Shown here piece by piece: positions 13,391 to 50,510 of a stretch of DNA of 64,000 nt (the first letter of the stretch is position 1; each line of letters opens with the position of its first letter). A program made the translations under genes and the position numbers. The notes under the pieces are model-generated. The model saw nothing but the letters and a program-made list of their open reading frames with translations. It was not told the DNA's origin and made no database searches. The stretch is from Cucumis sativus. Taxonomy: Eukaryota; Streptophyta; Magnoliopsida; Cucurbitales; Cucurbitaceae. The stretch covers positions 4,526,001-4,590,000 of the forward strand of contig NC_026657.2 in NCBI RefSeq assembly GCF_000004075.3. The letters are read 5' to 3'.

Positions 13391-13960
13391 TAATCGAACA
13401 CATAAACGTGAGTAATCTTTTTCTAAACGATCGTGTACTATAGTCTAAATAAATGATCTACAATCTTTTAAGTCATGATACATGATCGTGTGTAGTTCTT
13501 TTTAAATATGGGGAAAAGACTTCAATTTTAAACAATCGTGTTAACCATACTAAATGACTGTGTTGACTATGGTAGATGATCGTTTAGAGCATATCTACAC
13601 GATCGTGTAGTTCTTTTTTTAATTGATGAAAAAAAGGTTTCAAATCTAAACGATTGTGTGGACCATGCTAAACGGTCGTGTTGACTATGGTAAGCGATCA
13701 TTTAGTTTATATCCACACGACTGTGTAATTCTTTTTAGACAATGGAAAAAGAGTAAAATCTAAATGATCATGTTCACCCAGCTAAACAATTGTGTTGACA
13801 ATGCTAAGTAATTGTTTAGATAATATCAACACGATCATGTAGTTCTTTTTAAACGATGGAAAAAAAGCTTCAATTTTAATGATTTTGTTGACCATGTGGT
13901 AAAACATCGTGTTGACAATGGTAAATAATCACTTAGATCATGTCAAAATGATATTTAAAC
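13390..13960. repeat. Array of about 117-bp units with acgatcgtgt core
   Basis: The phrase gtagttctttttaaa recurs near 13494, 13610, 13728 and 13843, giving a period of about 117 bp. Each unit holds several short words such as aacgatcgtgt, gttgactatggtaa and gatcatttag. The array is diverged, with single-base changes and small indels. It is the tail of a larger element that continues to about 14260 and is present again, inverted, at the right end of the window. Confidence 0.85.
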
Positions 13961-29904: not shown

Positions 29905-32480
29905 GATGCCTTTTGCCACTAAAATCAACAATGCAGGCTTCTTCCTTGCAAACTTGACATGTTGTTTACATTTAGCAAAGACTGTCTCGAACATTAAAAA
30001 CAAGTTAACAGCTAGGTAAATCTATATGTTTAGGAAAACCTTGTTTAGACATTTCTTGGACGTTAAGTTGGATTTTAATGAAGTCTTGTGTCATTACATC
30101 TTGCTGAAAGAGTTTAAGGATCAATAGAAGAGCATTATTAGCTTTAAATTACTAGGTGAAAAGGTCTCCTTCAAGTAGGAAGATTTTGACATTATCACGG
30201 GATTGAGGTATAGGCTAAGACGTGTGGTTGAATTTGAAAAAGATAAAGCCCTTAGACTGCGACGATTATATTTGAGCAATAAGACGAATATGAACGGTGC
30301 TGAGTTGAATAAAGATTATCTATATATTCCGTTCAAGAGCAACGGGGTTGTGGTAAAGATATCCCAATTTCATTAAGAAACCTACTTATAACCAGTCCCT
30401 AGAATTGTATAGCCTATACATGTTTTCCTTCACATTTTGATAACTTGTAGAAATACAAGTTATTATGGCCTTTTAGGAAGAATAATGAAGTCTCAACACG
30501 AGCAAACGAAAAAAGAAGCATAGCTAAATAGATTAAATAAGACAATTACGTGTTAGAAGTAGCAAAATATTTGTATGCCTATTTATCACAGTTTTATGCC
30601 TTAATCCATGTTTTTAGGCAAAAAAGAGAAGAGTAGCCAAGCAACAAATGTCAAGCGAGGAGACATGCAATCACCAGGCGATAAGAGGAATGAAGCAAAG
30701 AAAATTACATCGTTAGAAGAAAAAACAATTGGTGCGCATGTCAGAAAAGGATGAAAGGGACGTCTGTAGCGCGAAACAACTTTATGAGAGATTTGATAAA
30801 GTCCAAACGACGTTAAGTCCCATAAATCTTCACCTATAAATAGAAGGTTGTATCTTCAAAACAAGCATGCAAAATTTTGGAGAACAGGCTTAGTTCATCC
30901 TTCATTGTCCTTCTTTGTTTTAGTTGAGAGCATGGAATAGAGTTGAGAGAAATCCCCATTCATGCTTCCCCTCAGTGTAATAGACAGAAAATAGAGTTGA
31001 GATAAATCCTCATCCATGCTTACCCTCAGTATAATAGGTAGAAAACAGGGTCGATGAGTGTGAGAAATTATACTCAGAGACTCGATGCACATCTCTTTAC
31101 TTCCACTTGTAATTTTCCTTTGTGTTGTATTTGTAATTTGAACATCATGGCCGAAAGGCTTAAAGTTTTAATTTTAAATACAATTTTCTTCTATTTTCAT
31201 TCTCTCATTTTTTTATCTTTCCATGTTATTACTTCTATGTGAAAAGTAAATGATATAGGGTGTAATTGATGCTAGAGAATTTGAATGTCTACATTAGTCG
31301 TCTTGTTCAGTTAAATGTTGTAGTCAATACCTTATTCTATTCGAGAGAAAAATGAAGTAATGAATATCGTCACCTAATAAGTGATGACATAAATTTAGCT
31401 AAATAGGCGGTAAAACAAAGGTAGTAATACATTCTTGCAGTTGAATTCCTCCTTAACATACATATTAAAAAATGTGAGTGTGTGTGGCGATAAGGCATCG
31501 AGAGGTTGCTCGCTTTAATATAGGATGAGTTGCATATAATTTAGTTAGGTGGATTAGATATAAATCATCTAGTAACTTAAAGTACTTGGATCCCAAAAGA
31601 CGAGCAAGTGTAGCGAATGCACTGAGAGGTTGCTTGTCTTAAATTTGAAGTTAATAAATGCATGCATTTGTATCGCCTTGACATATTTATTACCCTTGTA
31701 TTGCACGTAATTACTTAGATTTTCATGCATCCACGTCGTCTAAATATAACTGAGTTCACATTCCATAAACCACGAACCATGTCCACCTTATTTCTCCAAT
31801 GCATGTAGTAAGATACATTTAGGTTAGATAATAATGTCCATAAAATTATACTGTACAAATACCATACGTGGCACTATATCACATAATTGAGAGCTTATGT
31901 TCATTAATTCTACGTGTTTGATCTTAGCTTACCTAAGAAAGCTCTATTTTCTCTTACACTTGGACAAGAGGGAGGAAAACTTGTACGCACACGATGTATC
32001 TTTAAAGTTAGCAATGCATAGGAATGAGTCAACACCTTTTATCACATGAACCCATCTTAGACCCCTAACCCAGTCGCACACTTAGAGCCACATTATAACA
32101 TAAGTACGAAATGAACCAAAGCACCTTTTAGGTTAGTAACTCAATGCTTATTATGTGTTTTTTCTAATAGTTATATGTTTGCATTAGCGTTATTATTGCA
32201 TCTATAGGTTTGAGCCCACGAGATAGTGTCGTCCATTAGTGGGCAGGTTGCCAATAGGGCTTCACATGATGCAATACCACATACCATGTGATGGACTTGC
32301 ACATACTCACCCATGTTGAAGGTGATTTAGTTACAAGTTTTTGGGTCGCAAATGGTACAATGTGATTCATTTTCATCCTCTACCTGTTGATGATCAGGCT
32401 CGCATAGTGGAGATTGACCCGACGACTGACGAGCGTGCGTACTTGGATCAAATTCTTAAAATTTCGACGACATAAAGTTA
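29905..32480 (+). pseudogene. DUF1985/Ulp1-like transposon protein, copy A
   Basis: Readable parts are FFLANLTCCLHLAKTVSN, then MFRKTLFRHFLDVKLDFN, HYILLKEFKD and VSFK followed by EDFDIITGLRYRLRRVVEF. This is the characteristic N-terminal DUF1985 block (pattern FGHFL...LLR...EFALITGL). Stops interrupt it at several points. After the inserted LTR-like DNA, ARIVEIDPTTDERAYLDQIL (32400-32460) matches the linker region of copy B. The Ulp1 peptidase part is missing. The protein is not functional. Confidence 0.6.
30438..32135 (+). repeat. LTR-like insertion inside copy A
   Basis: The block starts tgataacttgtagaaataca, contains a TATA-like tataaatag near 30834, and carries a 54-bp tandem duplication at 30937-30990 and 30991-31044 (atagagttgagagaaatc / atagagttgagataaatc). 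It splits sequence that is continuous in copy B, and part of the target between B positions 34716 and 34960 is missing here. The 3' border is approximate. I interpret it as an LTR or LTR-retrotransposon remnant. Confidence 0.5.
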
Positions 32481-32734: not shown

Positions 32735-32832
32735 TTAATGGGGCTAAAAAATCTATACAACATATATATTTAAAATAACAAAGGAAGTGAACTTAACAAA
32801 CATAAGAAACGGTGAAGAAAGTGAAATGGTGT

Positions 32833-33010
32833 AGACTGTGATTGTGTTGCATTTTCATTACCTTTGGTTAGTTTCTCCAATCTAAAAAAGAACAAGTATA
32901 GTAAAAATCTTAATCTCAACATCTATAAAATCAAAATTAGTAAAAAAAATACAAAAACTTGGTGATTGTCTCATTATTATTAAAAGAGATATAGCCCTTT
33001 GTAGATTTGC
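32833..33010 (+). repeat. Upstream flank duplication, copy 1 (with 38970-39150)
   Basis: This block (agactgtgattgtgttgcat, then tacctttggttagtttctcc, aatcttaatctcaacatcta, attgtctcattattatta) matches 38970-39150 at most positions, with scattered substitutions and small gaps. Each copy lies some hundred bases upstream of a tRNA-Ala gene, so the tRNA genes were copied together with flanking DNA. Confidence 0.85.
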
Positions 33011-33204
33011 CTGTAATCTCATATAATTGTTAAGCCCACACAATTAAATATTATGACACTCCTAAAAGTATCACCTACCAAAATTGATAGAATTATGTTT
33101 AGATAAGCAATAATGGAAGAAAAATGTAAGAGAACACCAAAATCCATAAATGTGTAATACATTAACATTACATATACATAAACTTAAATTTTAACAAATA
33201 GTAA

Positions 33205-33277
33205 GGGGATGTAGCTCAGATGGTAGAGCGCTCGCTTAGCATGCGAGAGGTACGGGGATCGATACCCTGCATCTCCA
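33205..33277 (+). tRNA. tRNA-Ala (AGC), copy 1
   Basis: A 73-nt cloverleaf: acceptor GGGGATG/CATCTCC with discriminator A, D-arm GCTC...GAGC, anticodon stem CTCGC/GCGAG with loop TTAGCAT (anticodon AGC), and T-arm CGGGG-ATCGATA-CCCTG. The T-stem has a G-U wobble where copy 2 has G-C. The A box (TAGCTCAGATGG) and B box (GGGATCGATACCC) are intact, and a T run follows at 33280. No intron and no encoded CCA. It decodes GCU (and GCC/GCA via inosine). The about 105 bases upstream match those of copy 4. Confidence 0.97.
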
Positions 33278-34299
33278 TGTTTTTATATTTAACAAAAATT
33301 AACCTAAAAGTGAGTTGAGATCCAAATTTATCCTACTATTGAGTCCATTTGGATCAAAGAAATTGATATTTATTCATATTTATATTTATATAAACTTATA
33401 TTGTATCTTAATTTATGTAAAGAGGTGGTTAGAGGTATATTTTATATTAATTTTCCAATTTCACTTAAACCATCTTCCCCTTTCATGCATAACCTCTCCT
33501 CATCTTTTACACAAACCCACGAGAAATTTTGAAAAGTACATTTTTTTGCTTTACATTTCAAAAGTGGCACACTTTGAAAAAACTCATAAGTTTGTTTTTC
33601 TCAGTCAATATTGGTTGAGTTCGTCAACGAGATTGTGTGTTTTTTATTAAAATTTTTGAAAATAAATTGATATATCAAATTACCAAAATACCCTTGGTAT
33701 TTCGAATGTTACATAGTCTCCGAAAGCACTAAATGACAAACATTGTGCTCATTTCGATCGAGAAGTGAACGATTTCACTCCTACAATTTGAACGACTTTC
33801 AATAACTTTTCCTTCGTGAAACATTTTGAACTCATTTGTCCTCTTAAATCTCTCAAGGTGAAGCACCTTTAACGATTTCATAGTTTACGATTTAGTTTTT
33901 AGTATGAAATTTTAGGCCGATGTGAAACTTTGTAGTTGGTGGTCTGGTGTAGTTAGATGTACAACATTAGTTTAAGTTAATGCATGTGGTCTCCTTCAAT
34001 GAATCTCAACCATTTCATCAATTTGGGGTCGTGGAGATAAAGAATCTTGATCAAGATTTATGAAAATATCTCGAGATTCGTTGAAAGAGTTTCGAGATCT
34101 GATACGTTTCACATGCATTTTGTAGGGCAACCTTGAGGTCGATTTCACCCGAGATGGATACCAAGATTACCTTACATAATGCATGTGAATCTCATATCTA
34201 GTGGAATCCCAACAATGTTTCTCGAGATTAATTGGTGTTTCATGTTGTTCCCGACTAAGATTAGCCCAAGTTTTAACACATTATACATTTTGTGTTCCT

Positions 34300-37280
34300 T
34301 GCAAACTTGACTTGTTGTTCACATCTATCGAAGAATGTGTCAATTATAACAAATAAGTTAACACTCAGGTAACTTCACATGTTTAGAAAAACTGACTTTG
34401 AACACTTCTTTGGCATGAAGTTGGTGTTCAATTGACCTCTCTACCATTACATTTTGTTGAGAGAGATCGAGGAGGACAATATAACACAATTAGTTTTAAT
34501 TTACTGTGTAAGAAGGTCTCCTTTGGGTTGGAGGACTTTGACATAATAACGGGGTTGAGGTATAGGCTCAAATGTTAGGTCCAATTTGAATAGGACAATT
34601 AAACCCTATCGATTAAGAAAGTTATATTTGAGAGATAGAAAGGGTATGAGTTTGAGAAGGATTACCCAATCCTTCAGTTTGAAAATGACGAGGTTGTGGT
34701 GAAGATTTGATATTTTACTTCATCGAGCTTGCGATGATAGGTTGAAAAAGGAGACAACACATGGATTGGACGATGCTGGACTTGATTGACTATTGAAAGG
34801 ACTTTATTAGCTACGACTGGTGTGAGTTGGTATAATCCAAGACCTTTGCTACTTTGAAAGGGGCACTTAATGGAACAGTTGCCTTGCACAAGAAGAAACT
34901 TGCGAATAACAAGTCCCCGCATTTATATAGCCTCTACGAATTTCCCTTCGCCTTTCAGGTTTGTGATTACATGCTCATTATGTTTATTTTTTCATTAATT
35001 ATATGCTTGTATTAACGATATCATTGTGTTTGTAGGTCTGGGCCTATGTGTGAGACTCGAGTTTGGAATATAAGGGTTTTCATTTTTTGAAGAAGGTATT
35101 CTTAAGATTTAGGCGTTTTGAAGTTTGCGTCGAAGCTAGACGATGTGATAAGAAAGGTACGTATCCAAGCTCTGTCAACACAAGGAAGTTGATGTTTGGT
35201 GTTGAAACACGAGATGAAGTTAGGCAAGGAGAGTTAAGTATTTTGAGAAAATGTTTAATCTTGACTTGATAGCTAATTACGTGTTGGGTTTAGACTAAAC
35301 ATGGTCTAAAATGCTAAGTAAACTGACACGTGTAAAGTTCTAAGTAGGAGTTGGCAAGCTAAGAGAAGCTTAAGGGTGACTTATCTAGTTAAGGATGCGT
35401 ATAAATAGGATTGAAAAATTTAAAGAAAGTGTTGCCCAACTAAGAGAGCATTAGGTAAGAAGAAGTGAGTTGGAGTAAGGCATTCAAAGGAAGGGAAGAA
35501 ACTAAGTATGTTTGTGAGTGATTTTCTATAAGGAAAAAAAAAGTGTTTTGAAAACATTCTTTCTAAGTATTTATGTTATTTTGAAACATATAATGTGTAT
35601 TGTAATATTGTTAATGGTTATACTTGATTATCGAACAAGGAGTTTCTAAACTAAAGTTTCGATGTGATGATTGTATGTATGTATGTGAGTACTCATTGGC
35701 TATTATTCCTATCGATGAGCTAACTATTATGTGCATCTAAATGAGTAAAGGCAACCATGGGGTGCAAGGACCATATGGCGGTAGGAAGTGGACCAATGAG
35801 TTGAAAGGAGTGTATTGAGTTATCAGCTTGAGCAATGAGAAATGAACCGAGAAATTCTCCAAGGGATGCTAGTGAAATGAATCCCAATAGTTTATGTGTG
35901 GGAATGGTTCATGTTTTTTGCGAAAAGAATAATTGGAGGCTAATGTGTGATTTATGTTTTCAAATTGGAAGTTGAGAGTCTCGTTATGAAAATGAATTTA
36001 TATGATTGTATTGTATTCTCCAAAAAGGTTTTCCAAAATATCACTGACTAAGTATTTGACTTATGGCTTTAAATTTTCATTCTCCAAGTATTAAGGCGTT
36101 GAGTCCAAGTAAAGAAGGGTAAGGCGAGCAAGCTAGGCGCTGAGGCATTAAGCTAGGTGTTCTAAATGTGAAGTTGTGCTAGGTATTAGACAACCTTTTA
36201 CAATAGTTCTTTGTGGTTAAGAAATCTTGCAACACATGTTGTTAAGTATTAAAAAGAACTTGTATGTTTTATCTTATGTTATAAAAGTTAAGCTTAAAAT
36301 TTAAACTATAAAATTGATGTGTTAAATAAGCTTACTAGACGTTCTGCATGCAATCTCGCAAAGAGATACGTGTTGAGTGTCTAATCGGTCATGCCTCCAC
36401 ATGGTCGCGTGAAGTGATCTTAGGACAGGGTCTTGACACTACGAGACAATATCATCCATCAATGGGCGAGTTGTGCATAGGGAGTCATGATCTATGATAC
36501 CACGTATCATGTGATGGAATTGAACACACTCACCTAGGTTGAAGGTGATTGAGTCTCAGTTCGTCGGGTAGCAAATGGTTCATTACAATTCATTTTCTTC
36601 CTTCACATTCACTATAGTAGTCTTGGGTTTTGTCTCTTAATTAGCCCAAGTTGATGTTTTAATTTTAGGTCCGGATACATGAGATTCAACTTACAGATGA
36701 TGAGCGTGATTACCTTAATCAGAGAATTTCGACAACAAAGGTTACAAGGAAGGCCCTCATAACCCTCCTCCTCAGCACGTCGAGCATGCCCTACCACGCA
36801 CTCACGTCTAACATCCCCCTCCTCCTCCTATCCAACATTCTCACTCTCCTCATGGGGATGATGGTTGTCTCACCACATCTACAGAGCAGTCTACTCAGAT
36901 TGATAAACCTCAAAAAACATGTGATTGAATTCAACATGTATTATTGACCATAAAGGACCTTCTGATGGCATTGGTTAAGTATTATTATTATTTAGAGGGT
37001 CGCTCGCCTGGTTGACGTTGAGTACACTTGGGTTGAAGACGATACCATATGGAAATACGTCATGGACGAGTTATCAGATTATCACAAGGCATGGATGAAC
37101 ATTGACTTCATGTACATGCCTTACAACATCAAGGTATGCCACTAGGTTTTGATCATATGTTTGACATGGTCGAAGGACAAATCAACATTTGAGATTTGTT
37201 TATTGATTTGACATCAAAAGTAGACCTTGATAAAGAACTCGATAATATAAGGTGTGTTGTGCTGGCTCTGCTGTTCTGCG
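34300..37280 (+). pseudogene. DUF1985/Ulp1-like transposon protein, copy B
   Basis: Readable pieces are the DUF1985 block (SFGLEDFDIITGLRYRLK near 34510-34570), KKKLANNKSPHLYSLYEFPF (34890-34940), then, beyond the insertion, IHEIQLTDDERDYLNQRIST (36672-36731). Next come YTWVEDDTIWKYVMDELSDY and AWMNIDFMYMPYNIK (37020-37130), and DLFIDLTSKVDLDKELDNIR (37195-37254), which resemble the region leading into and through the Ulp1 cysteine-peptidase fold. Many stops and frameshifts. I could not see an intact His-Asp-Cys set. Not functional as it stands. Confidence 0.6.
35055..36435. repeat. About 1.4-kb insertion splitting copy B
   Basis: Copy A reads continuously from tttgagcccacgagatagtg (32208-32227), whereas copy B breaks after gggccta (35041-35047) and resumes at about tacgagacaatatcatcc (36438). 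The inserted DNA begins tgtgtgagactcgag and ends near gggtcttgacac, TG...CA-like ends with partly inverse-complementary tips (gagac / gtctt). It has no domain I recognise. A solo LTR is likely; the target duplication is ambiguous. Confidence 0.55.
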
Positions 37281-37289
37281 ATGACGTGT

Positions 37290-37585
37290 TCATGGTGAAG
37301 CCCAATCTACCTCTGACATCGTGGCCTTTTGACCATGTAGTTTAACTAAGATAACATCATCTCGTTTGTCTTCTACCTCTCTCAAGAGAATGTAGTGGCA
37401 GAACGGTCCATTGAAAACCAACTTCACGCTCAAGAAATGACCAAATGTTATTTTCCTAAACATGTGTACTTGCTTGGGTGTAAGATTGCTTGTTTTTTTA
37501 TGTTCGACACTATCTTTGCTAAGTGCAAACAACATGTGAAGTTGGCCAAGAAAAAGTCCTTAGAATTCATCTTTGTGACAAGAGG
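37290..37585 (-). pseudogene. Inverted DUF1985 fragment in the right arm of copy B
   Basis: On the minus strand LTCCLHLAKDSVEHKK-like text precedes MFRKITFGHFLSVKLVFN, PFCHYILLREVEDKRDDVI and LVKLHGQKATMSEVDW. This is the same N-terminal DUF1985 block as in the left arm but in opposite orientation, and it is better preserved there (an 81-residue frame stays open). It shows that the inverted arms include the start of the coding sequence. Confidence 0.7.
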
Positions 37586-38440
37586 CATCTAAAAAAAACA
37601 CGTAAATCTATATTCTATGATGAATCTCAGGTCAATCTAGGGACAGTCTCGACCGAGAAAATATGAATAAGTAATTGAATTTGAACAACATTGCACTGAG
37701 ATGTCACAAGATTAGGGCTTTGCATGCATTTTATAGGGTAATCTCGGTCTAATCTCGGGCAAAATCATCTCTGAGGTTATCTTACAAAATGCCTATGAAA
37801 TGTATCTAATGTCGAAACTCTTTCAACAAATCTTGAGGAAATTTCATAGACTTCAGTCGAGATTCATCATCTGCACGGACCCAGATTCATGACATTGTCG
37901 AGATTCATCGAAGGAGATTAGGAAAAATAATATCATCAAAACTAGCTCAGATTAACTCAACAATAACTATATCAAAACATCAAAACTACATAATTTTCCA
38001 TTTTCCTTAAACTTCAAACTGAAAACTAAACTATCGAATTGTTCAAAGTAGTTCACCTTGACCAATTGGAGTAATAGGATGGCTTTTTCAAAATTGGGGA
38101 AGCACGAATCAGGAAAATTTAAAATATTTTGGGAGTGTTCTCGCTTAGATCTTGGAGAAATTAAGAAAAGTATTTAGAGTTTAGGGTTTTGTGAGAATAT
38201 CAAACATTTTGGTTCCAAGGTAATTTTTGTCATTTAATGTATACCTTTATTTCCTCAAATTTTTAATAAAAAACGCACAATCTCAGTGGTGAACTTGAGG
38301 AAGAGGGATTGAGAAATTTCCTTGAAAGAGTTTTTAAAAATTTACAAAGTATCACAGAGTCGATCTTAGTTGAGAATGACCGAGAAAAATAAATTTATGA
38401 AATTTCTAAAACTATGCTACTTTTGTTTGAAACATATTGA

Positions 38441-38965
38441 TTGAGCATCCACATTGTAAATTACCTAGCCGTTAAGAAGAAGAATTAAAGTTTAGTCGAG
38501 TATGAGCTACATGGTTAATAGTTATGGCATGTTGAAAATTAATTTATGGTTAGCTTGTCATCTTAGGTAAGAGCAACAATTTTCGTTGGCTGCTACAACT
38601 GTTGTTTCATGATCTGATCAAAATCTTTTCCAAGCAAACTAATGAACTCTGTTAATTGGTAGTTGTTGCATTCTGCTTGCTTGTTACTTTGGTTAGCTAG
38701 CTATTCTTGAAGCTTCGTGCTCCTTTTTGTGAAGTTTGTTCGGTATCCTAAAACACCCCCTCCACGATTACACCATTGTTTTTGTCTTCATGGTGAATGC
38801 TCTTTCTGGTTTCTCTTAAATTTTACTGTTTCTTTTGCTTCAATTGTATGGTTGATCGACAATCGAGTTTGGTGGTGTTGTCTTTTTTTATGTATCTCCT
38901 GTAGGATTTTTTTATTGAGGTTCAATCTTGGGAAATTGCTTAACAACAAAGATAGTGGAAGCGTG
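38441..38965. other. Intergenic between Mutator element and duplicated tRNA flank
   Basis: The short frame at 38717-38968 has no recognisable domain. Nothing else seen. Confidence 0.4.
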
Positions 38966-38969
38966 TGAA

Positions 38970-39150
38970 TCTAGACTGTGGTTGTGTTGCGTCTTCATTT
39001 CCTTTGGTTAGTTCGTCCAATCAGGGAAAGAAGAAATATAGTAAACAATCTTAATCTCTACATCTATAAAAATCAAAATTCGTAAAAGAAAGTATAAGTT
39101 GTGATTGTCTCACTATTATTAGAAGAGATACAGCCCTTCGTAGATTTGTC
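38970..39150 (+). repeat. Upstream flank duplication, copy 2 (with 32833-33010)
   Basis: Matches 32833-33010: agactgtggttgtgttgcgt, cctttggttagttcgtccaa, aatcttaatctctacatcta, attgtctcactattattaga. Lies about 370 bases before tRNA copy 2. Confidence 0.85.
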
Positions 39151-39517
39151 AAAATCGGGTGTTCGTTGAAAATAATTTGTTTTGTCATCATTTTATAAAG
39201 ATGTAATTTTTTCTTGAAAGGTCTTTTAAATCAAAGAAATAATATCATACGTGGTTAGGATCTTACATTAGTGTAAGGCAATGAAAGAATTTAAAGTTAA
39301 AAGTCGTTAAGATTTTGCCATGATATGTGAGTATAAAGTTAGTTATTAACAATGGAGAGGTGTGAGTGTAAGGGTAAACTAGACATTAATAAAAAAAAAA
39401 GTAGGAGCGAAGAGGGAAGTGAAAAAATCTCCACTCTCTTAACCCTTTTTTAATATACTAAAGATTTTAACGACTTATGTTTTAAATATATTTGTGTCTT
39501 TTTTGCCTTCCATTCAA

Positions 39518-39590
39518 GGGGATGTAGCTCAGATGGTAGAGCGCTCGCTTAGCATGCGAGAGGTACGGGGATCGATACCCCGCATCTCCA
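39518..39590 (+). tRNA. tRNA-Ala (AGC), copy 2
   Basis: The best-paired copy: T-stem CGGGG/CCCCG is fully Watson-Crick, with the same acceptor, D and anticodon arms as copy 1. Intact A and B boxes, T7 terminator starting at 39593. The 5' flank of about 100 bases (gaagtgaaaaaatctccact ... cattcaa) matches that of copy 3. The 3' flank (attaacctaaacgcaaatta, from about 39640) matches that of copy 1 and an orphan patch near 40665. Confidence 0.97.
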
Positions 39591-39594
39591 CATT

Positions 39595-40885
39595 TTTTTG
39601 TTTATATATTTTTTAAAATATTATTTTAATAAACATTAACCTAAACGCAAATTAAGGTCCAATAGTGACTCCGTATTTTTATTAAAACGTCGAGAATAAC
39701 AAAAAGTAGAAAAATGCATAATTTTTTTTAAAAAAAATTCAATACTTGGCCGGTTAAAAGTGTCAAATCTAGTTTTATTTACTTGACTTTTAAAACATGT
39801 CAAATACATTGCAAGCCTAATTCTCTTGAAAAGTTCAAAGAATATAAGGTTAAAGTTGATAATGAATTAAGTACCACAATAAAGATACTTCGACCCAAAA
39901 AAAAAGATGCAGAGAAATCTATTAGGAATCAAAGATGAAGAATGTAAAAGTGAGAGATTAAAGAGAGAATAACCATAAACATCATTTCCAAAACATAACA
40001 AAGTGGCGTGAGGATGCCAAAGAAAAAGGTTTTTCCATTTTATATTATTATTTTGTAATTAAGTATGCTTTTGATGTAAAGATGTAGGATGTGGTTACTA
40101 CTATAACATATTATGAATCTTGTAATTGAGAGATCAGAGGAATTTTTTTTTCTCTATTTGTATTATTTAAATAATATATTTTCATTTAAATTTACTTATT
40201 CATTTCAAAACGATAACTAGCTATAATTTTTGGAAAATTTGTTAAATAATTATACTTCTTGAATATTGTAGAAATACATAAGATATATAGAATTAGCACA
40301 AATGTCCAAATAATAATAAAGTTGATGTCGATGTCGATGTCCAAAATTTCATTCCATTTAAACATTAAATATGTAATTGATACATATAAAAATACTCATC
40401 GATCTAAAGTTTGATTGAATTGATTGTTTCATAATCATACTATCAAATTCTTTACATCTTTTAGCTCATTTGATTTATACACCGCATATAACAAGTCTTA
40501 CAGAGTAAGAGGTCTCTTAAGAATAAAGCTGAAAAATGTATTTCCAAAAATTGTGAGTAAATAAATATAACTTCATACTATTTGTGTGATTAATTGCTCT
40601 CTTTTTATTTAGTCAAATAAAATGAAAAATTAACGTGCATAAAACACATGTTATCAACTAGTTAACCTAAAAGCAAATTAAGGTCCATTAGTGTTTTGTT
40701 TATTTGTAAATAAATTAAAAGGTGATCAAATGCTACTACTGACTCCAATTGGAATATTTCCTTCAAAGATTGAACAAAACAATAGAAGACAATGCATGAA
40801 ATACAAAATTATGATCCATACTAAGACACCCTATTTTCACTATAATTTTAACTAAAATTAAATTGTCAATTTAAGATAACAACAC
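39595..40885. other. Intergenic with an orphan tRNA 3' flank
   Basis: At about 40663-40705 gttaacctaaaagcaaatta followed by aggtccattagtg repeats the sequence that lies downstream of tRNA copies 1 and 2, but no tRNA gene precedes it here. The rest is AT-rich. A short gatgtc repeat (gatgtcgatgtcgatgtc) lies at 40324-40341. Confidence 0.6.
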
Positions 40886-41110
40886 TACAAGAAATATATA
40901 GGTTTATCGATACTTCAGATCAAAGAAACTGAGGTTGGAGGGTGAAAAACGGTCATAAATGAGAAAAATGTGAAATTTTGGCCGAAAAAAATGAAAATTT
41001 CAAATTGAATATTTCTTGACACATTTTTGCGTCATTAAACAATGACATTTTTATGTGTCATTGTAAACCTAATAAAATTAAGGTTTCATTAAAGACAATA
41101 AAAAAGTTTT
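40886..41110 (+). mobile_element. CACTA element terminus 1
   Basis: CACTACAAGAAAT at 40886-40898 is the canonical plant CACTA end. The following 200 bases hold subterminal repeats around tgacacatttttgcgtcatt and aatgacatttttatgtgtca, in both orientations, as in CACTA elements. The matching far end (atttcttgtagtg) was not found downstream, so the element is truncated or its other end has diverged. A C/T-rich, leader-like region follows (41110-41330), part of which (tttcccaatttcacttaaac) is also found at about 33444-33463. Confidence 0.65.
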
Positions 41111-42830
41111 TCTTTTCCTCCCTCTTCACGAAAATAAAAATAAAATATGATATTTATATAATTTTATATTTTATATTTTATATTAGTTTCCCAATTTCAC
41201 TTAAACCCTCTTACCCTTTCACTCACAAATTCTCTTCCTCTTTCACACAAACCCTTCCTCCCCTTTCGCCGCTCGTTGGATTTGCTGGCCACTCATTTGA
41301 TATTTCATCTGTTACCTTAACTACAAGAAATCGAGGCATTCTCGATGTCGAAAAGGGTGTTGGCAAAATGTACATCTGGAATGGCCCACCATTCATGACA
41401 AAGCTATGCATGTGTCAATGGAGAAATCAATTATGGCATCTACATTTAAACGTCGTGAATGGTCCACCAATCCCCAACGTCAACGTTCACAACATCAGGG
41501 AAAGAAATATTATTATTTTATTTTTTTAATTTTCCCAACATCATTTAGACAGATATTATTGGGAATGTGTAAACCTATTCTTGATGTTTCACTTTATGGT
41601 CGAGAGTAGAGGGATCTCTTGACGTCTTCGAAGTGCGTTGGGAGATCCCCTACATATTTGAGTTTTGCGTAAACATAATTTAGAATTCAAATCAAAAGAA
41701 AAAAAAAGGAAGATTAGGTTGAGAGAGAGAGAGATCGTCGTGCCGATGTTGTCCGTTGTTTGTCGTCCTATTTGACAACCGCTCATTGTCTTTTGTCGCC
41801 TACTCTGTCGTACTACCCATGTCCGACGTTGACGCTTGCCCTATCCCTTTGTTCTTTGAACTTCAAAAGTTATTTTTTTTATAAAAAAATTTCCCTTAAA
41901 CTCTTTGATAATTTAAAGTTAGTTTGTGGTTTAATTAGATTTTTATTTGATTTTGTTGGAGTGGATTAATGGATTGTAATTAATTAGTGTGTACAATTTG
42001 TGGAATGTTGTGATTGTTGTTGAGAGTTGTTGTATTTGTGGAATAAATTGTTAAATAAACAAAATAGAGATTGGGTGAATAATTACATATGTTGAAAGTA
42101 AGGTTCTTTGAATAGTAAAACAATAAAACGTAATATGGAGAGAAAGAATAGAGAGCTCTCGTTGTTATTGTTGTTCTTGTTGGAATCCATGGAAACTTTA
42201 ACTAAAATAAAAGTAAGGTTTTACCATGTTGTTCTTGTTGTTATTGTTGAAATCCATGGATTGAAGAGCTCTCAATACTTCGAATATTGTTAGAGTGTTT
42301 ACTGTAAAGAGTGCAAGTTGAAGAACATTTCGTGTATGAAGAGAATTTAAGATTTCATTGTTGTTTTGTTTTAGTTAATTAGTTTAACTAAAGTATTATT
42401 ATTGTTTTGTTTTAGTTAAATACTTTTAGTATTTAGATTTCAAATTAGTTTTAGGTGTTAGATTTCAAATTAGTTTTAGTATTTAGATTTTGATTTAGTG
42501 GTCGGTTTTAGTGTTGTTAGGATTTAAGATTTAAGATTAAAGTTAGAATTCAAAATTCAAAATTGAAGAATACATATGTTGGGGAGGTTGTTCTTTGTCT
42601 GTTTTTTGTTATTTAAAATTACATAAAACTATGTTGAAACTTTGCATTTATATTAATGTATAGATTGTATATTGTATGTATTTTTTATATTAAATTTGTT
42701 GTATTTCAGAATTACAATTTGCTATTAAAGGAACAGAGAAAGAAAAGGAAGAATATGAGAAGACTGTAGAAGAGCTTAGGTGCAAGAATTTCCTTCGACT
42801 GCGTTTGAGGATTTCAAATCCAATAATTTA
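41110..42830 (+). other. Interior of truncated CACTA-like element, no clear gene
   Basis: An open frame of 158 residues (41053-41529) spans the leader-like region and has no domain I recognise. The section near 42108-42300 contains leucine-rich text with a local repeat (ccatgttgttcttgttgtta, gttattgttgttcttgttgg). 42360-42490 repeats tttagatttcaaattagttt. Function unknown. Confidence 0.35.
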
Positions 42831-42834
42831 AAAA

Positions 42835-43221
42835 TGATAGAATGTGCAAAGAGAAAAGTTGAACATTTCTATGAGCTGCGTTGAAAGAAATATGAGGTTA
42901 CTTCAAATAGAAACGACCCTTACTCTGGTGGTTCTAGAAAATTTGTTGGAAAAATAGGAGCAAAAAATGACAAGACCAAAAATGGAACAGGTAAGCCATA
43001 GAAAGTTTCATTTACAAAATATGCAAGTGGGAAACTTTCTATGGCTTACCTGTTCAATTTTCGGTCTTGTCATTTTCGGTCTTGTCATTCTTTTGCTCTT
43101 CTTTTTCTAATCAATTTTCTAGAACCATCAGAGCAATGGTCGTTTATGTTTGTCGAAATTCCATATTTCTTTCGACGCAGCTCGTAATAATGTTCAACTT
43201 CCCTCTTTGCAAATTTTGTCT
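42835..43221. repeat. Long inverted repeat with a 21-base loop
   Basis: The left arm (42835-43009) and right arm (43031-43221) are reverse complements over about 175 bases. Closest to the loop, caggtaagccatagaaagttt pairs without a mismatch, and further out aagttgaacatt, gagctgcgt and ggttctagaaaat match. The right arm has an extra 15-base duplication (attttcggtcttgtc occurs twice). A transcript would fold into a near-perfect hairpin. The left arm looks like former coding sequence (AKRKVEHFYELR-like), preceded at 42715-42790 by KGTEKEKEEYEKTVEELR. Confidence 0.9.
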
Positions 43222-43867
43222 ATGTCCCTATGATTATACTAGACAGTTATGTTGAGGCAATCTTTTTAGGTTTTATTATTCATGCAATTTCTAAACCTAT
43301 AAACATGTACTTTTTTTAATATTTGAATTAATTTTCATATAATTTCAATTTGGTATTTTAATAATTTTTATTAATTTTACGTTAATTACTTTTAGAATTT
43401 GATTGAATTTGATCCCAATAGCAAAAAAAAAAAAAAAAAAGTATTACAAAAAAGTTTTTCCAAACGCACAAAACACATTGGGCATGGACACCTATTGTTG
43501 ATGAATGTTGTAGGATTTTCTTTTCTTTTATAACTATTATAAAACAAATTACACATCTAAAATCTAAAATCTATAATAAAGGTATCTTGCATGTTCATCT
43601 AGGTTAAATATATCAACCAAATTTTTCATAGATTTAGATCGATATCTTGTCAAACTGGTTACAAAGAGGCTCACTTGATTTGATCTTGTCAACAAGTCAG
43701 ATAAGATAAATAAGGTTAGAGGTTCTTAAGCTGACGGTTTACAAAACATCTGTTTACTTAGAGATCGTAATCAATTTTTTAACCTAGTTAACCTAGTTTT
43801 ATGAACATGTGGAAGAGATGTGAGGTAATGAAACTGGTTTATCAGCTAGACATCGTAGGTTTAAATT
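43222..43867. other. Intergenic, no gene seen
   Basis: AT-rich, including a run of about 18 A at 43424-43441. No gene, RNA or element ends supported. Confidence 0.5.
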
Positions 43868-43868
43868 G

Positions 43869-44306
43869 TTGGGATTTATGTCCTAAAACTCGTAAATAGT
43901 AAATATATAATTCATTGATCGTTATTAATTAATTAATTAAATGTTATTATTATTATTTCAATCAACGTTATTAATTATATTATTAGTTTTCTCTTAATAA
44001 CCTAAATTGAATAATCTAACATCATGAGTTGTTTCATGAGTCTTCAATAGTATGTAGAGACATACAATGATCAATGTTCAAGATCAGCTTAAAAGGTCTA
44101 TAGTATAAGGATAATGTTAGGTACATTATCTTGGTAACACTATGGATACGACTCACTTTGTATTTGATATAAATACAATGATCAAACGCATTCATGTAGG
44201 TGACATGCAAGTGAGGATATCATAAGCAATGAGTTTGCACAAGATCGGACCACAAAATAATAACCACTAGATGTAATTTCGTTAACTAGTTAGGTTTCTA
44301 TTTCAT
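43869..44306 (+). mobile_element. Copia-type LTR fragment, interrupted
   Basis: The segment begins tgttgggatttatgtcctaa, a style typical of plant copia LTRs. It contains gacatgcaagtgaggatatc and tgagtttgcacaagatcgga, related to the LTR-like block at 6.3 kb. Similarity to an LTR stops where the CACTA-like end at 44307 begins, with no CA terminus before it. It is either truncated or interrupted by that element. Confidence 0.5.
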
Positions 44307-44515
44307 TACTCTACAACAAAAGTGACATACTATGACAGTTGTATACATCCCAAATTGAATTGAGGGAAGAAAAAATTGTCATAAATGCCAAAATCCGCAT
44401 TTTTGTCGGGAAAAGAAAAAAAAATGGATTTTGAGAATTTATGACAGTTTTTTTTGTCACAAATTATGACAACTTTTAATTGTCATGAAATATAAATAAT
44501 AAAAAAATAATTATT
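44307..44515 (+). mobile_element. CACTA-like terminus 2
   Basis: tactctacaacaaaag at 44308-44323 resembles a degenerate CACTA end (cactacaacaaaa). It is followed by inverted subterminal words: tatgacagttg, attgtcataaatg, tttatgacagtttttt, aattatgacaactttt, aattgtcatgaaat. A pyrimidine-rich leader-like stretch follows, the same layout as terminus 1 at 40886. No opposite end was found. Confidence 0.5.
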
Positions 44516-47500
44516 TCAAATTAAAAGAAAAAGAACGAAGAAAAAAAAGGGGGGAACTTGCCTTTACGTGAAAACAACTTTTCTTTTCTCAATTTTCTAA
44601 AACAAAAGAGTCTTTCCTTTTTTTTCCCCCCATTTTTCATTTCCCCCAGTTTCACGAAAAAAAACTCTTCTTCTTTCTTTTTCTTCCCCTTCCAATCGCA
44701 CGATTTCCCTTCTCCACCACATGTCGTCAATTCGCCACAGTGGTTTCGCACATGTCGTCGATTCCCCTTCTCCACCATGCTCTCCGCTCAGTGATAGCTC
44801 AAGGTGCTTATTGCGTTAATGCTCCTCTGTGCAATTTTTCCACAGTGAAGGCTTCTCCATCTGATGCCTCTTTGCAATGTTCTTTTCTTCACAACTGTTT
44901 CACTCATATCAAAACCCTCCTCCGTCCGCCGTCCCTATGCCCTATCTCACTCATTGCCCTCTCACTCTTCAGACTACCAACCATCTCCTACCTTCATCGT
45001 CTGTGGCGGTCTCTCAGGTACTTATGAATCTAATATTTACTCTTCGTACTTTTCTTTGAGTAAGTCATCCTAGAAAAGATAGTTTTATGATATTTGAGTA
45101 AAGCTTTAGGATATTTGCAAAAATTGCAAAGTGGTTTCTAGACACAAAATCACATGGTCGAAATTTAAGAGGAATCGAGTTCTTGCTCCTGCCGATTTTT
45201 TCAATTAAACTTGAAACTCAATTCTCAACATTGCATCTAAGATATGTTCTTCACAAGTTTCTATATTTATTCCTTAATTTTTCTAGTTTTCTAGCTGCCA
45301 CTAAGTAAATGAATATTATTTTGTGTTGCCCACCAATTGTTTGATGAAATGTCCATAAAATGACTCATGAAGTTTCTTATTTTAACATGTATCTATGTAT
45401 GAAATTTTTTTGTTCAAAGTTTTAATAAAGTTGTTTATTATTTTAATAAAGTAGCAATACTTGTTGGGATTATATTTTTTTGCATTCATGCAAAAACTTT
45501 CATTAAGCTTAAAGGTTGAGTTATATATTCAACTTAGTTACAATATCATTCTGATAAAATTTTTATACAGATTTAAATTAACGTGTATTTTCATTTGTTA
45601 ATTGAGATTAATTGGACAGAGCATATATCAGTGAAATGATGTTGAGAGGTATTGTTTTCTTATTCAAAATATGTCATTCTCATCATTTTTTGGTTGAGTA
45701 AAACGTTTGCTTCTAGAAGGGTATGAAGTCTTTTTCTATGTTCAAAATACACTTGCTCTTTATATGTATCTTCTTTATTCTCATGACATTATATGTTAAT
45801 CATTTTTTTAAAATTATTGATACGTGATGAGGACTAATTTTGTATGGGTTGGAAATTTTGTTACTCATATGTTTGATTGCTTGTTAATCTGTTTCTGTTT
45901 GTTTTTTTCTTTCAAAATTTATGGTACATTTGGAGAAGCAAAAACCTAATATTACTATTGAATTCTATGTAAAAATTCATAAAAGTTTGCAAGTTAGGTA
46001 ATTGTAGCTTTAGCTAAGTCTGCATTCTATTTTGCATTTGGAACTAAAATTTGGTGATATTAATCAATTGGAGTTCTGGGGGCTTTATGACATTATATAA
46101 CTATTTTTTGTTCTTTTTAAAATATAATTTATGCATGTTCCAACTAAATATAGCAATTGCACTATTCTTTTAATGCTTTTGGATATCTTTTCTTTTCCTT
46201 TAGTTACTGAATTTGAGTGTTTGGTTGATGTGTGCTTAAATTTATCGGAACATAATCGTATATTATAAACAAAATTGGGCAATCGGTTTATAGTTAGGGA
46301 GAGAATCCCTACTCTCTCAAACCAAAGATGAAGAAAGAAATTCTGTAAACATGAGTCATGGAACCCCAAAGTTGAAGCTCAAGGTTCGTTTATTGTTTTG
46401 ATTATATTCTATTTAAAGAGAAGTAAGAATTTGGCTTCTTGTCTTAATTCCACTTTGAGGCTCCATCTTCAAGATTGCTTATTCTACCTCTTGTTTTCTT
46501 AAGATGTTGGATTGTTATATGCGGGTGGTGTCCTCAATTTGAAGTTTTAGTAGATTTAGAGGCATCAAACTACATAGATTTTTCTTTCTCTAATCTATAA
46601 TTATAAAGCATGCTTAACTTAGTTTGGATTATAAGAAAATTTATTTCTGTAATTGTTTCTCAATGTACGATATTTTAAGTTCCTAATTAAATTTGAAAAG
46701 GCCTCTGTAAAATCTTCTGTTTCAAAGGGCTTTAATCCCTTCATATATCTAGTATAAAAGTTATGCTCGGATGTATTACCTAGACTTAGGATTTTTTTAA
46801 GTTAACCTAAATAAAATCCTGAAGTAAAAGAATACCCTTAAAATTGTTATAGAACACTTCAGCTAAAGAGGTAGTATTCTTTTAACTTTAACATCCCTAA
46901 GAGTTCACGCGTGAGGTCTATGTAGAGCTTTGGACTGTGCATAGGAGCAGACCTCCTTTAGAGAGTGCTTGCATCGACCAATATTAAGGTGAATATAGAA
47001 AGTAGTTTATAGTAAGCGGGTGAGGGATATGTGACAACAAACCCCACGGTCTTTTCCATTAGGTCACACCGTGAGATTCCTATAATGGCCCGCTTGTCTA
47101 TCCTGGAGTGACATTCCCTTCGGAGGGTTGTGTTATAGAATTTAGAACACTACAAACTCCAAATAAGGTAGGTTTTCTTAGATCAGTTTTTCATATTTAT
47201 CACACCCCATTCTAGGTTTTTCCCTCTAACCTAGATCATGGTGTGAATTTACTCTTTAAAAACATTCCTTTTCAAACGTAAGATTGATAAATACTTTTCA
47301 AGAAATTCTATAAAAATATTTGCACCACCTCCCCTAAAATACGGGTTAGCCAAACCTAAAAAGAGGGAGAATTTTTCACTTCTATATATATAAGAGATCT
47401 TCAGACACAAAATGTCCTCAAGTGTGTCTCACCACACACTCATCCAGACTAGTTCAGAATCTCAATTAGAGTTTATATCCAACTAGAAATTTAGTTACAA

Positions 47501-47640
47501 AAGATTACAGTCTATTAATAAAATTCTCAAACACATATCTATAGCACGGCCTTCTTCACTACCTCTAACAATCTCATAATGCAATATAAGATTAAATACA
47601 TACATACAAAAGAAATGGGAATCTACAAATGGTGATGGAG
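44516..47640. other. C/T-rich leader-like stretch, then AT-rich DNA; no supported gene
   Basis: 44560-45030 has open frames in all three forward phases, all made of C/T-rich low-complexity sequence. A donor-like caggtacttatg occurs at 45015. 46880-47480 is less AT-rich and looks like an LTR or untranslated retrotransposon region (ttcacgcgtgaggtctatgt; tctatatatataagagatct near 47382), directly upstream of a copia gag scrap. No protein domain was recognised. Confidence 0.4.
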
Positions 47641-47689
47641 AGCTCAATGAACCATGTAAGAAGCAGTTTCAACATAACACAAAACGCAT

Positions 47690-47871
47690 CGAATACTATG
47701 CAATCGTTTCAGTTTGGTTCAATTTTCAAATGTTTTATGAACACCCTTACCAGCATGTCTGATGTTTTGACAAAAAAAAAAAAAAATGAATCCTTAGCCA
47801 CGGCTAAAGAGATCATAGATTCATTAAGAAAAATGTTTGGAGATATAGAGATTTTAAATATTATATTTTAA
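47690..47871 (+). pseudogene. Short copia gag fragment
   Basis: The frame ends with KNESLATAKEIIDSLRKMFG (about 47782-47841), which matches the conserved gag segment SLATAREIMDSLREMFG of plant copia elements. It stops a few codons later, and no further gag or pol follows. An A14 run lies just before it. Confidence 0.65.
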
Positions 47872-47879
47872 AAAGAGGG

Positions 47880-47978
47880 AAGTGAAAAAAATTTCCACTC
47901 TTAACCCTTTTGAATATAGTAGAGATTTTAATAAATTATATTTTAAATACTATTGTGTCTTTTTAACTTTTCATTCAA
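47880..47978 (+). repeat. Upstream flank of tRNA copy 3, duplicate of 39410-39517
   Basis: gaagtgaaaaaaatttccac, ttaacccttttgaatatagt and attgtgtctttttaactttt, ending cattcaa, match the 5' flank of tRNA copy 2 almost throughout. The tRNA gene and its upstream 100 bases were therefore copied as a unit. Confidence 0.9.
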
Positions 47979-48051
47979 GGGGATGTAGCTCAGATGGTAG
48001 AGCGCTCGCTTAGCATGCGAGAGGTACGGGGATCGATACCCTGCATCTCCA
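47979..48051 (+). tRNA. tRNA-Ala (AGC), copy 3
   Basis: Identical to copy 1 over all 73 bases, including the T-stem CGGGG/CCCTG wobble, although its 5' flank resembles copy 2. Intact A and B boxes; a T5 terminator follows at 48054. The mismatch between gene identity and flank identity suggests gene conversion or sampling of a shared ancestor. Confidence 0.97.
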
Positions 48052-49800
48052 GGTTTTTATATTTTCTAAAAAAAATTGTTACATTTGATTTTTCAAGTGT
48101 AAATAATATGTAAAACATTCTCTTTTTTACAATTTTTCTTTATTTTAACTTTATCTATTTGATATGTGAAGAATAATTATTCAAATAATATCTATCCCAA
48201 GTCATTATTTCTAGTTCATTCAAATTTTAAAATATGTTCAATATACAAAATAGGTCTTCTAATACATCCAACAAATAACTATTACAAAATATTCAAGCTA
48301 CATTTTGTCAACAAAAAAGATATATATCATCCACACGAAAACACATTGTTTAACACAATGCAATCTTAAAGTTGATCTTTTTTATCTTTTAACTGTACAT
48401 GATCGCATACATAATTTGTATTCATATTTTTTGTCCTTTTAACTTTCACATGCATAATTTGTGTTCATATGTACGTTCTAGGAGGCATTGTGTTCAATCT
48501 GCATAAAAGCGTAGAACAAAAGTTGAAGTTAATGTAAAATTTAAAAATAAAAAATAAAAGCCAACAAAGTAGAAAAAAACTACTTGAGTCATGCTTCTTT
48601 GAGTCGTGATGGAGTTTGAACAAATCTCATGAAAGAGTTTTCCTTCCTTTTAATCTAAAAACATTGAGGTGATAAAATTATTAGTTAATGTCACATTTGG
48701 AGTATACAAATATCACATACATGTACACATACCAAGGATATCTTCAATCTTTTAGCCCATGGTTGAGTTGCACTCTTGTTTTGTCTTACTTTACCATTAC
48801 ATCTCCGTGCATTATGACATTTTTTACCACATTTGCTACAAGTTATGTCTATCATTTTTTTTATGTACTCAACTATATTACTTACTTATCTTGTCCCTCT
48901 TCCTTTGTCTTTTAGGTGTCCATATAGTAAGAGAAGTACAGGGTTCATGGCCACATTTCCATTCTATTAATTTGTTTAACATAGTGAGAATAGGTTAAAA
49001 TGAAGGTTTCTTTATAGAAATACTTATTAACAGACTTCTAGACTCTTCGTAAGAGACCAAATACATTGGATATAGCATGTGAACCCACTTATAGCATGTA
49101 CATATGTGTTTTTTCAAATAAACAATATATTATTCTCTACCCCGCATTTTCAACCTTAAACATCTCCTCGCCAGAAAATCTAGGTGCCCAATTCCTAGCA
49201 AGCTATTTACTCCTTTCTAACTTTGTTTGAATACTTGGACACAACAATCCTAAGAATTTTTGTGTTTGCTCTCTATTTTTATGAATTCTCCTCACAGGTT
49301 CTTTCTAATAATTTCCATCATGGTTAAGATAGGCTTACTCTTAGATGGAAGAATATAAAAGGTGAAACACCCGTTCAAGTTGTTTAGCAACATGTGGACT
49401 TTGCATTAGACCTAAATGCATGTTTGGACCAATGACTTGGTTGTATAGCTTCCAACCAATTGTAAGTTGTCAAATCCACTTAACTAAGCCTCTTTAATTC
49501 CTTCTCAAAAGCAGATGTTGTAGTAGCTTTTGTAGAGTTCCAAAGTGCATCTTTATACAAGTTTCCTTCGAACATAGATATAAAAAAAATTAGAAAAGTT
49601 AGTTTCTTCCTAGATATAAAAAAAACTCACTAGAATGTTACCTTTAAACTTGGCTTTAAAGTTAACATACAAGTGTCTAACACAACAAATGCTTACAACA
49701 GGTGCCACAAATTCAACGATTGGTATAAAAAACTCTACAAATAGAAGAATGATTAAAACTAAAGGTATAAAAATAAGAAAAGCTAATTTCAATGTCTATT
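48052..49800. other. Intergenic, no gene seen
   Basis: AT-rich DNA with several short frames lacking domains (48166-48369, 48688-48998, 49610-49792 minus). Some could be diverged remains of the Mutator element whose transposase fragment starts at 49828. Confidence 0.45.
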
Positions 49801-49827
49801 ATTATCAAGATTAAATTTTCATATAAC

Positions 49828-50326
49828 TTACTTTTTTTGTTCTTCTGGATTGAAAGTCCACCTTACATCTTCGATATCATCCAATAGTAGTTGAAGGAAC
49901 CAAATCCACGACTCTTTTGACTTAATTTCTACTATTGCATATGCCAGTGGAAATATCTCATCGTTGCCATCAACTCCAACTGCAGTCAACAATTGCCCCT
50001 TACATTGTCCTTTCAGGTGGAAACCATCTATGCGAATAATCGACTTACAACCACTTAAGAGTCCCTTCTTACGAGCATTTAGACACATGTACAATCGTTT
50101 GAATATCGGTTGTACTCCATTAACTTGTCTATCAACACTCTACATAACTTATTTCCTCCCAGTATTACAACAACTTATCATTTTGTTATTTTGATGCTTC
50201 CTTTATCATTTTAATGGCAATCAGTTTTTCTCAATAAGCTTGATTTCTCGAAATGTATATATTGAACTCCTTCCTCATGGTCTCTTGAATTGCAGCCCAC
50301 TCCCAATTAGGTTGAGTTTTGAATCT
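49828..50326 (-). pseudogene. MuDR-type Mutator transposase fragment
   Basis: The minus strand reads KTQPNWEWAAIQETMRKEFN, then, after stops, CKSIIRIDGFHLKGQCKGQL, LTAVGVDGNDEIFPLAYAIV and KESWIWFLQLLLDD. This is the classical MULE transposase domain (pattern IDGxHLKGxYxGxLL, A.GxDGNxxxxPLAxAxVExExxxSWxWFL), including the first catalytic Asp in the RIDG motif. The N-terminal zinc-finger part and the C-terminal SWIM finger are missing, and frames break between 50100 and 50220. Similarity ends at about 50326, exactly where the duplicated tRNA flank begins. Confidence 0.85.
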
Positions 50327-50329
50327 TCC

Positions 50330-50437
50330 ATTTAGATAAGCAATAATGGAAGAAAAATGTAAAAGAATACTAAAATCCATAAATGTGGAATACATCAATA
50401 GTTCATATATGTACACTTAAATTCTAACAAACAATTA
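50330..50437 (+). repeat. Upstream flank of tRNA copy 4, duplicate of 33100-33204
   Basis: tttagataagcaataatgga, agaaaaatgtaa, aaatccataaatgtg and cttaaattctaacaaa match the 5' flank of tRNA copy 1 nearly base for base. The match starts abruptly at the edge of the Mutator transposase fragment. Confidence 0.9.
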
Positions 50438-50510
50438 GGGGATGTGGCTCAGATGGTAGAGCGCTCGCTTAGCATGCGAGAGGTATGGGGATCGATACCC
50501 CGCATCTCCA
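50438..50510 (+). tRNA. tRNA-Ala (AGC), copy 4
   Basis: A 73-nt gene with two differences from copy 2: G instead of A at base 9 (gatgtggctc) and a T-stem first pair of T-G (TGGGG/CCCCG). Acceptor and anticodon arms are unchanged and the A box still fits the TGGCNNAGYGG-type consensus, so it may be active. A T4 run follows at 50513. It lies head-to-head with the Mutator fragment and just upstream of a PMD fragment. Confidence 0.96.

What the first reader, a model, noticed from the sequence alone, without database searches (positions are those of the whole stretch)
33205..50510. Four tRNA-Ala(AGC) genes on one strand, spread by segmental duplication
Four 73-nt tRNA-Ala(AGC) genes lie at 33205, 39518, 47979 and 50438. 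The flanks pair up: the 5' flank of copy 1 matches copy 4, that of copy 2 matches copy 3, a block further upstream of copy 1 (32833-33010) matches one upstream of copy 2 (38970-39150), and the 3' flanks of copies 1 and 2 match. So the genes moved with their surroundings in several rounds, not as simple tandem copies. All keep A and B boxes and T-run terminators.
Basis: partly seen in the sequence, partly recalled or inferred. Interest (0 to 1): 0.7.

Follow-up and report, generated by a model that had tools for sequence, protein, structure and literature searches.

The report
Locally duplicated plant alanine-tRNA gene cluster
Four near-identical alanine-tRNA genes in a plant chromosome, most likely cucumber, arose by old local DNA duplications whose flanks were later reshuffled around the tRNA genes; this is an ordinary kind of gene cluster with an unusually readable history.

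Summary
Four tRNA-Ala(AGC) genes lie on one strand at 33205, 39518, 47979 and 50438. The pairwise flank matches are real; apart from the far-upstream block, searches of the 226.6-Mb genome, most likely cucumber, found them only here. The genome holds at least 22 AGC genes.

Two corrections. The 32833-33010/38970-39150 block is a dispersed repeat, 6 places. And the flanks tell no single history: by 5' flank the pairs are 1-4 and 2-3; by 3' flank, 1-2. In pairs 1-4 and 2-3 homology ends at the tRNA 3' end. The four dated blocks have similar divergence (K2P 0.13-0.16), about 14-18 million years at the rate used for cucumber.

Best reading: old local duplication, then short repair or recombination tracts anchored in the one sequence all four share, the 73-base tRNA body. 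That mechanism is inferred. The cluster is loose, lies among transposon debris, and is of a known kind. No sister genome was available, so the synteny test could not be run.

The parts
33205..33277 (+). tRNA-Ala(AGC) copy 1; C64>T, giving a G50-U64 wobble in the T stem (stem pairing by inspection)
39518..39590 (+). tRNA-Ala(AGC) copy 2; identical to the consensus of the 22 AGC genes found
47979..48051 (+). tRNA-Ala(AGC) copy 3; C64>T as in copy 1
50438..50510 (+). tRNA-Ala(AGC) copy 4; A9>G and C49>T (U49-G65 wobble by inspection); T run of 4 only
33098..33204 (+). 5' flank type alpha of copy 1; only other genome match is at copy 4
50331..50437 (+). 5' flank type alpha of copy 4
39410..39517 (+). 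5' flank type beta of copy 2; matches copy 3 (genome search was made with copy 3's flank: 2 places)
47873..47978 (+). 5' flank type beta of copy 3; only other genome match is at copy 2
32792..33009 (+). block A upstream of copy 1 (81% with 38939-39148); low-copy dispersed repeat
38939..39148 (+). block A upstream of copy 2
33283..33325 (+). 3' motif after copy 1, matching 39621-39662 after copy 2
39621..39667 (+). 3' motif after copy 2; a second copy lies at 40662-40693
40662..40693 (+). second copy of the 3' motif (30 of 32 identical to 39636-39667), beyond inserted sequence
33436..33518 (+). block C after copy 1; matches 41172-41254
41172..41254 (+). block C after copy 2; only other genome match is after copy 1
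39890..40595 (.). dispersed repeat between copy 2 and block C; 48 match rows incl. self, 40 of 331 candidates scored
48205..50139 (-). broken MULE (Mutator-like) relic, antisense, between copies 3 and 4

Best explanation
These are four ordinary nuclear tRNA-Ala(AGC) genes made by local DNA duplication. Shown: two segments (block A - tRNA 1 - motif - block C, and block A - tRNA 2 - motif - block C) are colinear, the second with extra sequence inserted; copies 3 and 4 share with 2 and 1 only about 107 bp of 5' flank plus the tRNA gene. Shown: in copies 1 and 2 the homology partner changes at the tRNA gene. Inferred: after or around the segmental duplication, broken DNA was repaired by copying from a neighbouring tRNA gene, using the shared 73-base tRNA body as the homology anchor and running about 107 bp into the 5' flank before rejoining. 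Each gene therefore kept a body and terminator but could receive another copy's 5' flank. Function: by sequence, Pol III genes for an alanine tRNA; expression not tested.
For: Genes. Flank matches confined to the cluster by these searches: alpha in 2 places, beta in 2, block C in 2, 3' motif in 3. Boundaries: in both 5'-flank pairs homology ends at the tRNA 3' end, followed only by a T run. 5' flanks of 1 vs 2 score 21, near the unrelated mean of 19.2 (253 of 886 unrelated pairs score as high), although blocks A and C of the same segments differ by only K2P 0.139 and 0.162. In simulation, 0 of 500 flanks at 14% or at 25% divergence scored 22 or less, for either of the two flanks tried. Similar divergence of the four dated blocks: 0.131, 0.127, 0.139, 0.162, standard errors 0.028-0.049. 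A second cluster in the same genome (C4, three Ala genes) shares 3' flanks, but 5' homology ends by about -45. Yeast precedent for breakpoints at tRNA genes: PMC2675101, passages seen.
Against: No direct evidence for a repair event. At 35% divergence the simulation gives scores of 22 or less in 46 and 61 of 500, so very old flanks could look unrelated, although the outer blocks argue against such age. Block A, one of the two outer blocks, is a dispersed repeat, so much of the 1-2 link rests on block C (83 bp) and a 43-bp motif that a plain genome search did not recover. Body variant T64 is shared by 1 and 3, agreeing with neither flank pairing, and occurs in 4 of 22 AGC genes; it is a CpG transition, so recurrence is likely. 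Weak 3' similarity of 1-3 (22 of 886 unrelated pairs score as high) and 2-3 (37 of 886) blurs the picture. Direction of copying is undetermined: the MULE beside copy 4 could not be followed past the gene.
Confidence: 0.55

Rival explanations
1. Plain segmental duplication plus reciprocal loss: an ancestral unit held two Ala genes (beta then alpha between blocks A and C); it was multiplied, and copies 1 and 2 are units that each lost a different member, while 3 and 4 are a unit that kept both.
For: Order beta-alpha of copies 3-4 fits; similar divergence of the four dated blocks; a second 3' motif at 40662 could mark a lost gene.
Against: Blocks A and C were not found around copies 3 and 4; no place near 40662 is among the 30 best of a tRNA-body scan of the window; it does not explain why homology of 1-4 and 2-3 ends at the tRNA 3' end.
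Confidence: 0.25
2. Independent short insertions of a roughly 180-bp piece (5' flank plus tRNA) as filler copied during break repair, with no pre-existing tRNA gene at the receiving site.
For: Both shared pieces are of similar size (186 and 195 bp) and abrupt; copy 4's piece lies about 200 bp from recognisable MULE transposase sequence.
Against: Two independent inserts would both have to end at the tRNA 3' end; copies 1 and 2 sit at the same place of colinear A-C segments.
Confidence: 0.15
3. Transposon or RNA-mediated spread (MULE capture, SINE-like or tRNA retroposition).
For: MULE relic near copy 4; shared pieces end at the mature tRNA 3' end.
Against: No CCA after the gene in any of the four copies; the shared piece begins about 107 bp upstream of the gene; flanks alpha and beta were found in only 2 places each.
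Confidence: 0.05

Closest known systems
Arabidopsis tRNA-Cys cluster, chromosome 5 (PMC10701932; passages incl. part of the abstract seen)
   Same: Four same-anticodon genes in diverged repeat units (84-94%) with transposable-element (Helitron) marks.
   Different: There the genes sit in regular tandem units of about 0.4 kb; here spacing is 2.5-8.5 kb and the flanks are mosaic.
Arabidopsis tRNA-Pro and Ser/Tyr/Tyr (SYY) arrays (PMC12308677, PMC11700998; passages seen)
   Same: Local amplification of nuclear tRNA genes.
   Different: Tandem arrays; this cluster fails the within-1-kb definition used in PMC11700998 and PMC12652284.
Yeast rearrangement breakpoints at tRNA genes (PMC2675101; passages incl. 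part of the abstract seen)
   Same: tRNA genes sit where homology or synteny changes; recombination between near-identical copies is one cause its authors suggest.
   Different: Inversions and translocations there; pieces of about 180 bp within 17 kb here.
Concerted evolution / gene conversion of tRNA genes (PMC4981973; passages seen)
   Same: Near-identical paralogues; conversion named there as a contributing factor.
   Different: Here about 107 bp of 5' flank is shared as well, in pairs.

Membership tests
Nuclear plant tRNA-Ala(AGC) gene | Cloverleaf score above the Rfam tRNA cut-off with AGC anticodon | tested here: met
   4 of 4, 55.7-60.3 bits against 29
Nuclear plant tRNA-Ala(AGC) gene | Upstream CAA motif and downstream T run (named in PMC11700998) | tested here: met
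   CAA within the last 10 bases before the gene and a T run of 4 or more starting at +3 in 4 of 4; the TATA-like patterns used matched only in copies 2 and 3
Nuclear plant tRNA-Ala(AGC) gene | Transcribed and charged | not testable with these tools
   no expression data
Tandem tRNA cluster as defined in surveys (neighbours within 1 kb; PMC12652284, PMC11700998, passages) | Neighbouring genes within 1 kb | tested here: not met
   start-to-start spacings 6313, 8461 and 2459 bp
Local segmental duplication | Homology beyond the gene confined to the region | tested here: met
   alpha, beta, block C and 3' motif found only here; block A not confined
Local segmental duplication | One pairing explains all flanks | tested here: not met
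   5' pairs 1-4 and 2-3; 3' pair 1-2
Retroposed tRNA | CCA after the gene | tested here: not met
   0 of 4
MULE-captured gene | Gene inside MULE terminal inverted repeats | not tested
   only transposase remains were identified

The most novel reading that the evidence does not exclude
tRNA gene bodies act as short recurrent homology anchors through which neighbouring copies swap their 5' flanks, so that a plant tRNA family exchanges upstream regulatory sequence among members while the coding body stays constant. The C4 cluster, where 3' flanks are shared but 5' homology stops close to the gene, would be the same process.
Probability: 0.25. Interest if true: 0.5.

Novelty: new member of a known kind. 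Interest (0 to 1): 0.25.

Why it matters
It is a small, datable case in which tRNA gene copies can be told apart by flanks and body variants, so gain, loss and flank exchange of plant tRNA genes could be followed across Cucumis genomes. If flank exchange anchored on tRNA bodies is general, upstream flank and gene body would have separate histories in tRNA families. As a finding in itself it is ordinary.

Tried and rejected
Simple tandem duplication of a two-gene unit: it predicts flank order alpha-beta-alpha-beta, whereas alpha-beta-beta-alpha is observed. Block X (32210-32379 vs 36433-36602) as part of the duplication: dropped, 24 matches in the genome (self included) and higher divergence, K2P 0.266. 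Reading the shared T64 of copies 1 and 3 as kinship: set aside as unsafe. 9 of 13 differences from the consensus among 22 AGC genes are CpG transitions (binomial 3e-5; by distinct changes, counted by hand, 5 of 9, 0.008). A CpG-decay signature special to this cluster: not supported, 3 of 4 genes here against 5 of 18 elsewhere, Fisher 0.12. Polarity from the MULE near copy 4: relatives aligned only up to about 50124 and nothing was found past copy 4; an open frame at 50231-50416 that looked MULE-like by eye had no Pfam match. tRNA remnant near 40662: not among the 30 best places. CACTA-type terminus: one exact match at 40883, but 9 matches with up to 2 mismatches against 12 expected; not followed. 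Genome-wide RF00005 count: not informative, only 63 of 17,665 candidates scored. The literature search for a cucumber tRNA-Ala cluster listed 2 papers, both on animal mitochondrial genomes by title.
Full report
WHERE THE WINDOW LIES. The window is C3:4526001-4590000 of a 226,625,048-base genome in 88 contigs; contigs C1-C7 are 22.5-40.9 Mb. The published cucumber assembly has 226.2 Mb and seven pseudo-chromosomes (PMC6582320, passages seen). I take the genome to be cucumber. The match of individual chromosome lengths is recalled, not looked up.

THE GENES. Four tRNA genes are found in 64 kb, all tRNA-Ala(AGC), all on +, all above the Rfam cut-off. A search with copy 1 and its flanks found 44 places in the genome, 40 of 42 first-look candidates having been scored. 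The 40 places outside the window were fetched in 31 regions (32 were fetched; one is a MULE region). With the window they hold 43 tRNA-Ala genes: 22 AGC, 17 TGC, 4 CGC; the 44th place is a partial copy. These counts are lower bounds. Chained within 20 kb of each other lie seven groups; this one, with four genes, is the largest. The others hold 3, 3, 2, 2, 2 and 2.

THE FLANKS. Copies 1 and 4 share 89% over 186 bp from -107; copies 2 and 3 share 88% over 195 bp from -108. These 5' flanks were found nowhere else (2 places each). Against 886 unrelated pairs of tRNA-Ala 5' flanks of 120 bp (top score 44) they score 142 and 121; the other four pairs in the cluster score 15-22, like unrelated flanks. 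With 300-bp flanks one unrelated pair of the 886 scores 146, above both. In both real pairs the homology ends at the last base of the tRNA, followed only by a T run.

THE OTHER PAIRING. Copies 1 and 2 share block A upstream (81% over 220 aligned columns), a 43-bp 3' motif (79%) and block C downstream (86% over 83 bp), in the same order. Block C was found in these two places only. The motif pattern, written from these sequences, was found at three places, all here; a plain search with the near 3' flank of copy 1 found only itself. Block A is not confined: six places, 66-84% outside its own position. Between motif and block C, segment 2 holds a dispersed repeat at about 39890-40595, 48 match rows with itself included, and a second copy of the motif at 40662. 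A further upstream match, block X, is a dispersed repeat (24 matches) and is dropped from the argument.

WHAT FOLLOWS. Blocks A and C date the 1-2 duplication at K2P 0.139 and 0.162. The alpha and beta flanks date the 1-4 and 2-3 events at 0.131 and 0.127 (standard errors 0.028-0.049). At u = 4.5e-9, used for cucumber in PMC6582320 (passage seen), that is about 14-18 million years, each with an error of about 3-5 million. If the 5' flanks of 1 and 2 were as old as blocks A and C they would still align: in simulation 0 of 500 flanks at 14% or 25% divergence score as low as observed, for either flank; at 35%, 46 and 61 of 500 do. So the 5' flank of copy 1, of copy 2, or of both was most likely replaced. 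The shared piece ends at the tRNA body, the only sequence seen in all four copies. Repair copying anchored in the body explains this with fewest steps. A rival with an ancestral gene pair and reciprocal loss explains the order beta-alpha of copies 3 and 4, but not the sharp ends. That both 5' boundaries fall at -107/-108 is unexplained; with two cases it may be chance.

A PARALLEL. In the C4 cluster three Ala(AGC) genes, two of them followed by a Ser gene, share 3' flanks. Under permissive scoring their 5' homology ends by about -45; the strict 120-bp 5' flank scores are 17-18, the unrelated level. The strict 120-bp 3' scores are 29, 42 and 148, the first of these below the unrelated 99% mark of 32. 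The window is not alone in having homology that ends near the tRNA gene.

BODY VARIANTS. Against the consensus of 22 AGC genes, copy 1 and copy 3 carry C64>T, copy 4 carries A9>G and C49>T, and copy 2 is identical. Over all 22 genes 9 of 13 differences are CpG transitions. The T-stem ones leave a G-U pair (by inspection). C64>T is also in two distant copies, so it is no marker of descent.

CONTEXT. A broken MULE relic lies antisense between copies 3 and 4: transposase domain in the open frame 49828-50139 (Pfam MULE, 3.6e-10) and a 71% related copy on C5 covering 48205-49396. The alpha flank of copy 4 begins about 200 bp beyond the last transposase match.

KNOWN OR NEW. Local tRNA gene clusters are common in eudicots: 40 of 44 genomes in one survey, counting three or more genes within 1 kb (PMC11700998, passages seen). 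This cluster fails that definition. Rearrangement breakpoints at tRNA genes are known from yeast (PMC2675101, passages seen). I found no paper on this cluster; the one search aimed at it was. New member of a known kind. Nothing here shows expression or function beyond intact-looking genes.

Noticed in passing
L026 (C4:15056305-15065596): Three tRNA-Ala(AGC) genes, two of them followed by tRNA-Ser(AGA); 3' flanks homologous, 5' homology ends by about -45.
   Followed up: partly
C6:18475187 and C6:18550914 (L039, L038): Two tRNA-Ala(TGC) genes about 76 kb apart with the 300 bp compared on each side identical: a recent duplication or an assembly duplicate.
   Followed up: no
L022 (C2:3460932-3462611): Three tRNA-Ala(AGC) genes plus a partial copy within about 600 bp.
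   Followed up: no
33098 and 39410: Both shared 5' flanks start at nearly the same distance (-107 and -108) from the tRNA gene; unexplained.
   Followed up: partly
39636-40693: A 32-bp direct repeat (30 of 32 identical) flanks about 1 kb that includes a dispersed repeat.
   Followed up: partly
53250-54281 +; 55506-56615 -; 27967-28269 +: Neighbouring coding sequences: DUF1995 protein, family 8 glycosyltransferase pieces, HSP20-like open frame.
   Followed up: no
12500-12818 and 13490-13946: Tandem arrays of 135-bp and about 118-bp units.
   Followed up: no
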